Shown here: in pieces, positions 56,892 through 59,034 of the stretch
Layout: every line of letters begins with the position of its first letter
How positions within the stretch are numbered: the stretch's first letter is position 1
NCBI GenBank assembly: GCA_949289215.1
Contig: CASENC010000011.1
Coordinates: 1-64,000, forward strand
Length of the DNA stretch: 64,000 bases
From: an uncultured Bacteroidales bacterium
Lineage (GTDB): Bacteria; Bacteroidota; Bacteroidia; Bacteroidales; Muribaculaceae
Direction of reading: 5' to 3'
Translations under genes and position numbers: made by a program
Notes under the pieces: generated by a model
What the model was told of the DNA's origin: nothing
What the model saw: the letters and a program-made list of their open reading frames with translations, nothing else
The model's database searches: none

Positions 56892-56947
56892 TGTATGTTT
56901 CCACACATTAATTCCTTTTGGTTATATAAACTAACCTCGGCGCAGGG

Positions 56948-56955
56948 TAACTTTG
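56948..56955 (+). promoter_or_regulatory. -7 box before the capsid-like gene pair
   Basis: TAACTTTG, exact, 28 bases before the ATG at 56984. No clear TTTG at the usual distance. Confidence 0.4.
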
Positions 56956-56983
56956 CATCGTGAACTTTTAAACGACATATATC

Positions 56984-57457
56984 ATGGAAAACATCGAAGA
57001 GAAAAACGACGAGACCCGGTTGTCCGATAACCGGGAAAACAATTCTTCGGGCGAAGAACCGCTACAGGCCGACCTTGCAGCACTGTTTGCCCGATGGGCA
57101 GACAATCCGCTTGTAGCTATTGCACTGAAAGACTCGCGGCTGTGCCGCTTCATTGGCGACTTGCTTGCCGGTGACACTGCCGACTGCGCCGCACACCGCA
57201 ATTTCCCGCAAGAGCCACCCGAAATGCCAAAAGATGTAGCCACTCGCTTCAACATGGACCAAGCGGCAGCACGACGAGTAGCCGACTACGGGCGCACTGT
57301 AATGGCAGGCGACTGGAACGACAAAGCCGTGAAAATTTTACTGAAAGCCGCCAATCACGACACCGATGTGCAAAATGCCGATGCTGCCGGTTATCTGCGT
57401 GGCCGCAATGCGGCAATTGAAGCCAAACGCCGCAACAAAATTCCGCAATTTTCTTAA
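56984..57457 (+). CDS. Small protein before the capsid-like gene
   Basis: 157 residues, soluble and acidic at the N-terminus, no family known to me. The middle reads ALFARWADNPLVAIALKDSRL and the C-terminus DAAGYLRGRNAAIEAKRRNK, a basic helical end. It is 19 bases before the capsid-like gene. In phages small genes before the capsid gene can encode scaffold or packaging proteins; that role is only suggested by order. Confidence 0.55.
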   Translation: MENIEEKNDETRLSDNRENNSSGEEPLQADLAALFARWADNPLVAIALKDSRLCRFIGDLLAGDTADCAAHRNFPQEPPEMPKDVATRFNMDQAAARRVADYGRTVMAGDWNDKAVKILLKAANHDTDVQNADAAGYLRGRNAAIEAKRRNKIPQFS

Positions 57458-57476
57458 CCAAATACACAAAAAACGC

Positions 57477-58886
57477 ATGAAAAACAACATCAATCCTGCC
57501 GCAATACAAAGTTTGTGGCAAACCATCAAAGAGAACCGCGGCACCGTTATTATGCTGCTACTGATCGCCGCAGCCGTAATAGTGTTGCTGACGGGGTGCG
57601 ATGCCAACGCGGGAAGTACAATGGCACTTGCAACGGTGATTGCCGGAACCGACGGCGGAAGCCATGTAGTTGACGGCCCGGTAACCACCGACACCGTACG
57701 CCAATCGGGCAGCGAATTGCTGCTCAATGAGATCGACCGCCGCATAGTGAAAATACGCCCCATGGCCACCCCTATCGACCAAATTTCAAGGTATGCACGG
57801 CCTCGGCACTCCAAAAGCATGATTGTGGATTACTACACGGTCGATACTAAGCCCACCACATGCCGCCTGGCCACGGCATATTCCCCGTCGAAAGAGGGTA
57901 CCGAGGCACAACGTGTCACCATAAAAACCGACAACGACGATATGCTTGCCGTAAGCGACACCCTGATGCTGCCCGAAGTGCCTGGTTTCGAGGCCGACGG
58001 CTCTACACAATCGAGCAAAAGCCTTGTGCTGTATGTCGTGGCCAAAGACGACACCGGCGTTACCGTAATGGCCATAAACGGCTCGAAATTAGGCTCTACC
58101 ACCGACTGTGTGCCTGCATTGCCGCTTAACACGCCTATTGTGAGAATGGGTCGCGCGGCTGCCGAACTTGATGTGCAAACGCCGCAATTCGAGTCGTTGC
58201 CGCAAAAGGCCCAGAACTATTGCCAAATCTTCAAAATGCAGGTGGAGCAAAGCACCTTGATGAAAATCGCCGACAAGGAGGTGGAATGGACGCTGAGCGA
58301 CCAGGAAGAAGCCGCAATATATGACATGAGGCTCGGCATGGAAAAAAGTTTCCTATTCGGCACCAAGAAACAAATTTACGACTACCGCAAGAAAGAAAAC
58401 GTGATGCTTACCGAGGGGATATGGCACCAGGCCGGTAAAGACTTCAGCTACGACCCCGACACTTTCGACCAAGACACCCTGATAAGCCTCATGCGCACGG
58501 CTTTCACCGGCAATGCAGGCTCCAAGCGCAAGGTGCTGGTGGGCGGCTCGGCACTTATCGAAACCATTAACAAGCTCGACTACACCAAGGTCGTCAATGC
58601 CCGCGACACCGTCACGCGCTGGGGTATCGACTTCACCGAGATATGCAGCAAGTTCGGGCGGCTTTATGTGCTGCTCTCCGAGGTATTTGACGAATGTGGA
58701 ATGGACACCGCCGGAATGATTATCGACCCGGCATATTTGCAAAAATACTGCCACTTGCCATTCGACACCAAAGCCCTCGACTTGAAGAGTGCCGGCGTGC
58801 GCAACACCGACGCAACGGTGCTCACCGAAGCCAGCTGCCTGGTGCTGCGTTACCCCAAGGCCCACGTCCGCATCACCCCCGAATAA
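57477..58886 (+). CDS. Phage major capsid-like protein (DUF5309) with membrane or lipoprotein N-terminus
   Basis: 469 residues. From about residue 80 it follows the DUF5309 (SU10-like capsid) pattern of Bacteroidales prophages: LLNEIDRRIVKIRPMATPIDQISRYA, SKSMIVDYYTVDTKPT, ELDVQTPQFESLPQKAQN, EEAAIYDMRLGMEKSFLFG and TGNAGSKRKVLVGGSALIE. Unlike a normal capsid it begins with a hydrophobic helix (TVIMLLLIAAAVIVLLTGC) that ends in a lipobox-like cysteine. No terminase, portal, protease or tail genes lie nearby, and base composition matches core genes. It may be a prophage remnant or a host-adapted capsid-fold protein. Confidence 0.75.
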   Translation: MKNNINPAAIQSLWQTIKENRGTVIMLLLIAAAVIVLLTGCDANAGSTMALATVIAGTDGGSHVVDGPVTTDTVRQSGSELLLNEIDRRIVKIRPMATPIDQISRYARPRHSKSMIVDYYTVDTKPTTCRLATAYSPSKEGTEAQRVTIKTDNDDMLAVSDTLMLPEVPGFEADGSTQSSKSLVLYVVAKDDTGVTVMAINGSKLGSTTDCVPALPLNTPIVRMGRAAAELDVQTPQFESLPQKAQNYCQIFKMQVEQSTLMKIADKEVEWTLSDQEEAAIYDMRLGMEKSFLFGTKKQIYDYRKKENVMLTEGIWHQAGKDFSYDPDTFDQDTLISLMRTAFTGNAGSKRKVLVGGSALIETINKLDYTKVVNARDTVTRWGIDFTEICSKFGRLYVLLSEVFDECGMDTAGMIIDPAYLQKYCHLPFDTKALDLKSAGVRNTDATVLTEASCLVLRYPKAHVRITPE

Positions 58887-58937: not shown

Positions 58938-58965
58938 GTAGAGGCGCAAAATTTTGCGCCTCTAC
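58938..58965. repeat. 28-bp palindrome, variant centre
   Basis: The ends GTAGAG/CTCTAC are the same as at 946-973, but the centre is GCGCAAAATTTTGCGC instead of ACGCGATTAATCGCGT. It is still perfectly self-complementary, so both halves changed together. Confidence 0.9.
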
Positions 58966-59012
58966 AACTATTACATTATATAAAACACTGTAAATCAATC
59001 GTTGCCGTCAAC

Positions 59013-59034
59013 GAGACGATGTGCACATCGTCTC
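59013..59034. repeat. 22-bp palindrome
   Basis: GAGACGATGTG followed by its exact reverse complement. The matching place in copy 1 (near 1020) has only the left part. Confidence 0.85.

What the first reader, a model, noticed from the sequence alone, without database searches (positions are those of the whole stretch)
56948..58886. Isolated phage capsid-like gene with a membrane or lipoprotein N-terminus
The 469-residue protein has DUF5309 capsid motifs over most of its length but starts with a hydrophobic helix and LLTGC, a lipobox-like end. Only one small gene (56984-57457) accompanies it. No terminase, portal, protease or tail gene is visible up to the next core genes, and its codon use is not foreign. 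A capsid fold tied to a membrane could be a decayed prophage or a host-adapted shell or surface protein.
Basis: partly seen in the sequence, partly recalled or inferred. Interest (0 to 1): 0.75.

Follow-up and report, generated by a model that had tools for sequence, protein, structure and literature searches.

The report
Scattered gene-transfer particle in gut bacteria
The lone virus-shell gene in this gut bacterium is one piece of a set of six old virus genes, scattered over the chromosome, kept in almost a whole bacterial family and partly switched by one shared signal, which looks like a kit for building particles that carry DNA between cells.

Summary
The capsid gene is real: an SU10/HK97-type major capsid protein (MCP) behind a reduced scaffold-like gene, alone among host genes. 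It is neither a decayed prophage nor, probably, a stand-alone shell. The same genome carries a P22-like portal, a large terminase with its ATPase and nuclease motifs, a tail-nozzle protein, a head-tail adaptor and a TerS-like gene at four other chromosomal places. Each of the six is found in 79-82 of 89 genomes of the family (Muribaculaceae), in 4 of 59 other Bacteroidales genomes (one a phage), and the MCP in six further families of a wider sample. Gene trees partly follow rpoB, tested carriers form one rpoB clade, and dN/dS is 0.05-0.28 where measurable. In the window's genus the unlinked units share an unusual promoter box; a model trained on two of them picks the MCP promoter as top site of the 64 kb. 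Related Bacteroides phages (MCP about 40% identical) carry the genes in one cluster. Best reading: an ancient, dispersed, podovirus-like gene transfer agent, the first in Bacteroidota as far as I could search. Particle production and DNA transfer are untested. The N-terminal helix is inherited from the phage; the lipobox-like end is lineage-restricted.

The parts
56916..56955 (+). Shared promoter: box 1 TTTTGGTT (56916-56923), then the Bacteroidetes -7-type box TAACTTTG (56948-56955)
   Evidence: Model trained only on nozzle and adaptor promoters of the genus scores 56948 highest of all positions of the 64 kb on both strands (19.3); 0 of 300 control models do so; a model from the two own-genome sites alone does not
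56984..57457 (+). Scaffold-like gene, 157 aa, reduced; keeps the GYLRGRN motif region of phage scaffold-position proteins
   Evidence: phrog_22323 E 2.8e-5 over aa 104-150; longer forms of 246-279 aa in phages and sister families; function inferred from gene position
57477..58886 (+). Major capsid protein, HK97 fold, 469 aa
57537..57593 (+). N-terminal hydrophobic helix of the MCP (aa 21-39)
   Evidence: Predicted helix H21-39; hydrophobic stretch in 97 of 114 host MCPs and 71 of 79 from viral contigs
57588..57599 (+). Lipobox-like LTGC (aa 38-41)
   Evidence: Lenient pattern met in 66 of 114 host MCPs and 0 of 79 from viral contigs; lipidation not tested

Best explanation
The gene is the capsid subunit of a domesticated, chromosomally scattered, short-tailed (podovirus-like) DNA-packaging particle, most likely a gene transfer agent (GTA). 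Shown here: in the window's own genome, genes for capsid plus scaffold-like protein, portal, large terminase, nozzle plus adaptor, and a TerS-like protein lie on five different contigs. They are inherited vertically in large part, under purifying selection, and in the window's genus five transcription units share a special promoter. Inferred: a host regulator acting on that box switches on the units together; MCP assembles on the scaffold-like protein around the portal; the terminase fills the shell with chromosomal DNA by a headful-type, non-specific mechanism, because no single DNA segment holds the particle's own genes; adaptor and nozzle close the vertex; cells lyse (holin or endolysin genes sit beside the capsid genes in two sister-family genomes, and a muramidase gene lies beside the nozzle gene in genus g22); and the particles inject DNA into related cells.
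For: Distribution in 148 relatives: MCP 86, portal 86, TerL 85, nozzle 86, adaptor 83, TerS-like 84; within the 89 genomes of the family 82, 82, 81, 82, 79 and 80. These include genomes with only a phage-type copy: MCP G037 and G074; portal G035, G037, G074; TerL G008, G035, G037, G074. Own genome: MCP C11:57477, portal C27:20495, TerL C46:8878, nozzle C49:205046, adaptor C49:212222, TerS-like C14:79283. G063: MCP, adaptor and portal at 0.18 Mb, nozzle and TerL at 2.73 Mb, TerS-like at 2.83 Mb of one contig. TerL: 33 of the 34 host sequences examined keep all five motif regions; the 34th (G082) is cut by a stop before the last. dN/dS 0.05-0.28 in the 24 of 34 comparisons without saturated dS. 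Trees: 10-11 of 21 rpoB splits shared, null maximum 2-3; carriers against non-carriers UFBoot 100 in the printed rpoB Newick. Promoter. Nozzle fold: the first 25 Foldseek hits are chains of short-tailed-phage tail complexes. Lysis genes. Precedent: a podovirus-like GTA with two separated operons in Faecalibacterium (PMC12946183, section 9 read).
Against: No particle, packaged DNA or transfer was observed. Lysis and receptor-binding genes were not located in the window's own genome. Some genomes lack or break parts: stops inside TerL in 6 genomes, MCP in 2, portal in 1; G088 lacks all six genes, G009, G033 and G053 five, G075 four, G045 three. rpoB and gene distances correlate only moderately (r 0.41-0.64), so transfer or rate variation is not excluded. 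The box model built in genus g1 finds units of the set as top hit in only 7 of 54 loci of other genera, sister families and phages, and the TerS-like gene lacks the box. The portal of the family is shortened (about 425-525 aa against about 650 in phages), so its competence is not certain.
Confidence: 0.75

Rival explanations
1. A domesticated phage particle with another use: it packages little or no DNA for transfer and instead kills rivals, carries a cargo or forms a shell.
Against: The terminase, useless for an empty shell or tailocin, keeps its ATPase and nuclease motifs and dN/dS of 0.06-0.14 in the 6 of 8 pairs that could be measured; portal, adaptor and nozzle form a DNA conduit. No recurring cargo-like neighbour of the MCP was seen in the 40 loci plus window (10 of the 40 are phage-type).
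Confidence: 0.12
2. Anti-phage interference: retained, shortened phage structural proteins poison the assembly of related invading phages.
For: Related phage copies occur in some of the same genomes (G008:C56, G035:C69, G060:C15); portal and scaffold-like proteins are shortened.
Against: It would not need a terminase with intact motifs, nozzle and adaptor together, nor joint regulation; sister families keep long portals.
Confidence: 0.06
3. Remnants of old or repeated prophages without function.
For: Phage origin is clear; a few genomes have stops or missing genes.
Against: 79-82 of 89 genomes keep each gene; low dN/dS; tree congruence above chance; shared promoters in the genus; carriers form one rpoB clade.
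Confidence: 0.03
4. A dispersed satellite: the proteins work only when a helper phage supplies the missing functions, and then move mainly helper or satellite DNA.
For: Lysis and receptor genes were not found in the window's own genome; related temperate phages exist.
Against: No mobile unit holds the genes together in the own genome; only 7 of the 86 genomes with an MCP have a second MCP match.
Confidence: 0.04

Closest known systems
Gene transfer agents (RcGTA, BaGTA, FpGTA)
   Same: Phage-derived head, portal, terminase and tail genes fixed in chromosomes, inherited vertically, not forming a mobile unit. FpGTA is also podovirus-like and split in two operons about 125 kb apart (PMC12946183, section 9 read).
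   Different: Unrelated phage source (SU10_MCP and P22-like portal phages of Bacteroidales), other phylum, five separate places in this genome, single-gene units joined by a shared promoter box. RcGTA and BaGTA details are recalled except where PMC7947584 passages were seen.
Bacteroides phages BF1-TP2, BS-TP4, BKO1-TP3 and IMG/VR relatives
   Same: Homologous MCP (39-40% identity); portal, TerL, scaffold-position gene, adaptor and TerS-like gene in BF1-TP2 and BS-TP4; nozzle in IMG/VR relatives.
   Different: Genes in one phage genome, with longer portal and scaffold, a rhomboid-like gene and a giant polyvalent protein; the host sets are a separate clade (trees rooted on the phages).
Encapsulins
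   Same: HK97 fold; highest structural Z (14.8).
   Different: Encapsulins (recalled) act without portal, terminase and tail, with cargo genes nearby; here packaging genes are co-conserved.
Tail nozzles of T7 (gp12), P22 (gp10), SU10 and crAss001
   Same: Foldseek E down to 3.7e-16, probability 1.00, for the phage member of the 820-910-aa family.
   Different: Low TM-scores (0.20-0.44 of the query) and large rmsd; no PDB sequence match; host members were not modelled.

Membership tests
Gene transfer agent | Phage-type capsid, portal, terminase and tail genes in the host chromosome | tested here: met
Gene transfer agent | Vertical inheritance and purifying selection | tested here: met
   congruence is partial (10-11 of 21 splits)
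Gene transfer agent | Not a self-mobile unit (no integrase or replication genes with the set; genes unlinked) | tested here: met
   Five contigs in the own genome; neighbours in the fetched stretches look like ordinary host genes, judged by eye from translations; the whole genome was not read
Gene transfer agent | Active terminase motifs | tested here: met
   33 of 34 host TerLs examined have all five motif regions, one is cut
Gene transfer agent | Particles are made and released by lysis | not testable with these tools
   Lysis-type genes seen in two sister-family genomes and in genus g22, not in the own genome
Gene transfer agent | Packages and transfers random host DNA | not testable with these tools
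   Needs wet work
SU10_MCP family (PF17236) | Profile match above the curated cut-off | tested here: met
   174.1 bits against 24.1
HK97-fold capsids | HK97 fold | tested here: met
Encapsulin | Stand-alone shell with cargo gene or cargo-loading peptide | tested here: inconclusive
   No recurring cargo-like neighbour in the loci; packaging genes co-conserved; loading peptides not searched
Prophage | Contiguous set of phage genes at the capsid gene | tested here: not met
   No portal, TerL, adaptor, nozzle or TerS-like gene in the 64 kb; partners on other contigs
Bacterial lipoprotein | Signal peptide with lipobox Cys, lipidated | tested here: inconclusive
   LTGC present; pattern in 66 of 114 host MCPs and 0 of 79 from viral contigs; lipidation untested

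The most novel reading that the evidence does not exclude
The first gene transfer agent of the phylum Bacteroidota: a podovirus-like particle whose genes were captured once by the ancestor of Muribaculaceae and several sister families, dispersed over the chromosome in some lineages, and kept together only by selection and (in the window's genus and a few others) a dedicated promoter box, so that a dominant family of the animal gut carries its own DNA-transfer machine that prophage finders may miss. A further reading, not excluded: the source phages build their heads on the membrane (MCP with an N-terminal membrane helix) and mature them with the rhomboid-type protease encoded beside the terminase.
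Probability: 0.65. Interest if true: 0.93.

Novelty: new variant of a known kind. Interest (0 to 1): 0.88.

Why it matters
Muribaculaceae are among the commonest gut bacteria of rodents and ruminants (recalled). [quoted passage not shown] It makes testable predictions: which genes, which promoters, which mutants.

Tried and rejected
Decayed prophage, stand-alone shell and surface lipoprotein were tested and ranked down (see rivals). Lipoprotein reading: the Cys is lineage-restricted. Profile searches of the nozzle, adaptor and TerS-like families against PDB sequences gave nothing significant, and TerL of the own genome had no PDB match at E 0.01; the nozzle needed a fold comparison. A viral-contig scan with the host nozzle alignment could not be run and one with a host nozzle protein found nothing; a phage nozzle as query found 26 loci.

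Limits of the promoter test. The box was first seen by eye on all units, so training and test are not fully blind. The nine-site model misses 2 of 18 held-out units: portal of G000 and TerL of G002. 7 of the 18 test loci are under 5 kb. In G004 the portal and TerL sites lie inside the longest ORF, before a later start codon, and the scaffold start was not located. A model from the two G000 sites alone does not rank the MCP promoter first. Outside the genus the top hit lies before a unit of the set in 7 of 54 loci only.

Other limits. dS is saturated in 10 of 34 comparisons and above 1 in others. VIA-align lists many encapsulins and phage capsids at similar Z, so the fold alone does not decide function. 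The script prints a support of 51 for the carrier clade after re-rooting; in its printed Newick the split of 21 non-carriers from 15 carriers has 100, and I use that. Counts contain near-duplicates (the same genome can appear through two routes; some viral contigs are copies, and L151-L154 and L157 are host-type).

Literature: no paper was listed for gene transfer agent with Muribaculaceae or Barnesiella. With Bacteroidales, Bacteroidota, or Bacteroidetes plus terminase and portal, and in the 10 of 255 papers shown, no title or shown start of abstract reports a Bacteroidota GTA. Only the open PMC subset was searched. Seen: PMC12946183 (outline with abstract, passages, section 9), PMC7947584 (passages), PMC10197239 and PMC10892684 (passages). 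A passage of PMC10197239 says that VirSorter2 and VIBRANT found no prophage in Muribaculum intestinale; whether that species carries the set was not tested.

Full report
What is in the window. The ORF at 57477-58886 (+) encodes 469 residues and matches PF17236 SU10_MCP at E 6.1e-51 (174.1 bits, cut-off 24.1) and phrog_26635 at 9.1e-94 over nearly its full length. The best solved relative by sequence is the Vibrio phage VP1 capsid 9in6 (E 1e-7; 3.2e-13 with a profile). The 157-aa gene in front (56984-57457) matches only part of phrog_22323, the family of the protein that stands before the capsid gene in the related phages. Profiles for portal, terminase, adaptor, nozzle, TerS-like protein and muramidase find nothing else in the 64 kb, and codon use is ordinary (rank 36 of 47 from the most atypical).

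Not alone and not decayed. A search of 148 relatives found the MCP in 86: 82 of the 89 genomes of the family and 4 of 59 from other families. Two of the 82 (G037, G074) have only a distant, phage-type copy, so 80 of 89 hold the host type. Comparing 40 loci (10 of them phage-type) plus the window showed the MCP among ordinary host genes, in many loci with an adaptor gene and a shortened P22-like portal gene behind it. In the window's genome the portal is elsewhere: it is in 86 of 148 genomes (82 of 89 of the family), here at C27:20495-21850. The large terminase is in 85 of 148 (81 of 89), here C46:8878-10677. A protein of about 820 aa is in 86 of 148 (82 of 89), here C49:205046-207511. The adaptor is in 83 of 148 (79 of 89), here C49:212222-212746. 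A TerS-like protein of about 150 aa is in 84 of 148 (80 of 89), here C14:79283-79660. A few of these genomes have only a phage-type portal (G035, G037, G074) or TerL (G008, G035, G037, G074). The four positive genomes outside the family are the same in all six searches: G109, G115, G147 (host type) and G107 (phage type, one contig). Absences cluster: G088 lacks all six, G009, G033 and G053 five of six (three of these four are of genus g26); G075 lacks four and G045 three. The first four are 62-91% complete.

Linkage. In the own genome the set lies on five contigs of 25-252 kb. In G063, one contig of 3.31 Mb carries MCP, adaptor and portal near 0.18 Mb, nozzle and TerL near 2.73 Mb and the TerS-like gene at 2.83 Mb. 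In single-contig G377 (3.08 Mb) MCP, TerL and portal are at 1.395, 1.427 and 1.149 Mb; in G344 (3.44 Mb) at 2.726, 2.759 and 2.773 Mb. In G030 all lie within about 10 kb (L045). IMG/VR contig L152 shows nozzle, TerL, MCP, adaptor and portal in 9 kb.

Identity of the parts. Portal: PF16510 P22_portal, E 3.3e-13 for G015 and 4.2e-12 for the own genome. TerL: phrog_2 terminase large subunit, 1.3e-16 for G030. Of 34 host TerLs examined, 33 keep the Walker A, Walker B and three nuclease regions with their charged residues (G011 and G052 vary inside Walker A); G082 is cut by a stop before the last. The motif names are recalled. The 820-aa protein: phrog_32516, no function listed. The phage member, modelled with pLDDT 79.8, has chains of short-tailed-phage tail complexes as its first 25 Foldseek hits (SU10, cyanophage A4, crAss001, T7, P22 and others; E 3.7e-16 to 5.3e-9, probability 1.00, but TM-scores of only 0.20-0.44 of the query). 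Adaptor: clusters with phage proteins of phrog_22135, named from its position. TerS-like: phrog_27246, named from its position near TerL in the phages; this name is the weakest.

Origin. The nearest GenBank phages are Bacteroides phages BF1-TP2, BS-TP4 and BKO1-TP3 (MCP 39-40% identical); the first two, read here, have portal, TerL, scaffold-position gene, MCP and adaptor in one cluster. Of the 80 viral-contig loci, 40 hold MCP, TerL, adaptor and portal, and 4 hold a nozzle match as well, two of them weak. With the phages as root, trees of MCP, portal and TerL all place G109, G115 and G147 together outside the family. An order-wide search of 393 genomes found the MCP at E <= 1e-20 in 33: host type in families f1, f22, f28, f60, f68, f88 and f109, more distant copies in f20, f23 and as second copies in two f22 genomes; the list of genomes without a match was cut, so how many members of those families lack it is not known. 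TerL and portal were found in 29 of 29 of the chosen set, which includes one distant-type genome (G396); the portal hit of G351 is a 120-residue piece. In an rpoB tree of 36 genomes the split between 15 carriers (families f1, f22, f28, f60, f68, f109; no rpoB was found for f88) and 21 others has UFBoot 100 in the Newick. This argues for one capture. Against simple vertical descent alone: rpoB shares only 10-11 of 21 splits with each gene tree (null maximum 2-3 in 1000 shuffles), and distances correlate at 0.41-0.64.

Selection. Nei-Gojobori dN/dS in unsaturated pairs: MCP 0.050-0.156 (6 of 8 pairs), portal 0.083-0.139 (5 of 8), TerL 0.063-0.140 (6 of 8), adaptor 0.062-0.195 (4 of 4), nozzle 0.070-0.276 (3 of 6). 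Stops inside matches occur in 6 genomes for TerL, 2 for MCP and 1 for the portal: local decay exists.

A shared switch. In genus g1 the upstream regions of the scaffold/MCP, portal, TerL, nozzle and adaptor units carry a TTTTTGRTTG-like box 1 at a near-fixed distance (its start about 31-34 nt before TAnnTTTG, the Bacteroidetes -7-type box), mostly 15-40 nt before the start codon. A weight matrix trained on nine nozzle and adaptor sites only has its best hit in the whole 64 kb window, both strands, at 56948, the promoter of the capsid unit. Over six genomes and three held-out units the top hit of the locus is at the expected place in 16 of 18 cases (scaffold/MCP 6 of 6, TerL 5 of 6, portal 5 of 6); 9 of the 11 test loci longer than 12 kb succeed. 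None of 300 control models from other promoters of the same loci picks the site, and 2 of 56 control promoters have a box-1-like start. In genera g22, g18 and g23 seven loci again have their top hit before a unit of the set, with a variant box (TTTTTAAGG-like), out of 54 loci scanned; the other 47, among them the sister-family and phage loci, do not. The two TerS-like loci scanned (G000, G006) show no hit.

Lysis and fibres. In G344 and G115 (sister families) the capsid locus also has a fibre-like gene (related between them, no database name) and an endolysin (phrog_894, E 2.5e-23 and 9.3e-23), and in G344 a holin (PF05105, E 9.8e-8). In genus g22 a muramidase (PF11860, E about 8e-61) lies directly before the nozzle gene, in G068 behind the shared box. 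In the window's own genome these functions were not located.

The N-terminus. A hydrophobic stretch is present in 97 of 114 host MCPs and 71 of 79 from viral contigs; a lenient lipobox pattern in 66 of 114 and 0 of 79. So the helix came with the phage and was lost in part of the family, and the Cys arose later in some lineages. The phages encode a rhomboid-family protein beside TerL (PF01694 above cut-off in 3 of 4 tested), which suggests membrane-bound assembly and rhomboid maturation; this is inference.

Conclusion. A terminase with intact motifs, a portal, adaptor and nozzle have no obvious use except to move DNA through a portal vertex; genes scattered over a chromosome cannot travel together in one capsid; selection, and in this genus joint regulation, keep them. 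This is what a gene transfer agent looks like. Particle formation, DNA content and transfer remain to be shown. The precedent of FpGTA, podovirus-like and split over two operons about 125 kb apart, is from PMC12946183 (section 9).

Noticed in passing
L053:4388-4912, L052:5194-5679, L231:12112-12579, L232:11957-12475: Related phages carry a small rhomboid-family gene between the TerS-like gene and TerL, and an MCP with an N-terminal hydrophobic helix rich in small residues; a rhomboid maturation protease is possible.
   Followed up: partly
L152:39-8985 (also L151, L153, L154): IMG/VR contigs that hold host-type MCPs and, in L152, the compact cluster; they may be chromosomal pieces filed as viruses. 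L154 carries its capsid, adaptor and portal genes twice in inverted order, perhaps an assembly artefact.
   Followed up: partly
window 58938-59034: Two perfect palindromes behind the capsid gene (gtagaggcgcaaaattttgcgcctctac and gagacgatgtgcacatcgtctc). A sequence like the first occurs near L263:15900 in another part of the genome, so they may be REP-like repeats.
   Followed up: no
L051, L052, L053 (G060:C15, G035:C69, G008:C56); G222:C32; G318:C10 and C77: Phage-type second copies of parts of the set (MCP about 40% identical) in genomes that also carry the host-type MCP: apparent prophages or phage contigs of the source lineage.
   Followed up: partly
L264:7070-8746: A 558-aa ORF of unknown origin directly before TerL in the window's genome, with no called gene at the same place in sister genome G006 (L266): possibly a recent insertion beside the shared promoter.
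   Followed up: no
L231:7-3987, L232:18-7217, L051:9-2705: The phages encode a giant polyvalent protein (LPD38 PF18857 in L051; about 3,600 aa by the annotated gene span in BF1-TP2), of which no trace was looked for in the host sets.
   Followed up: no
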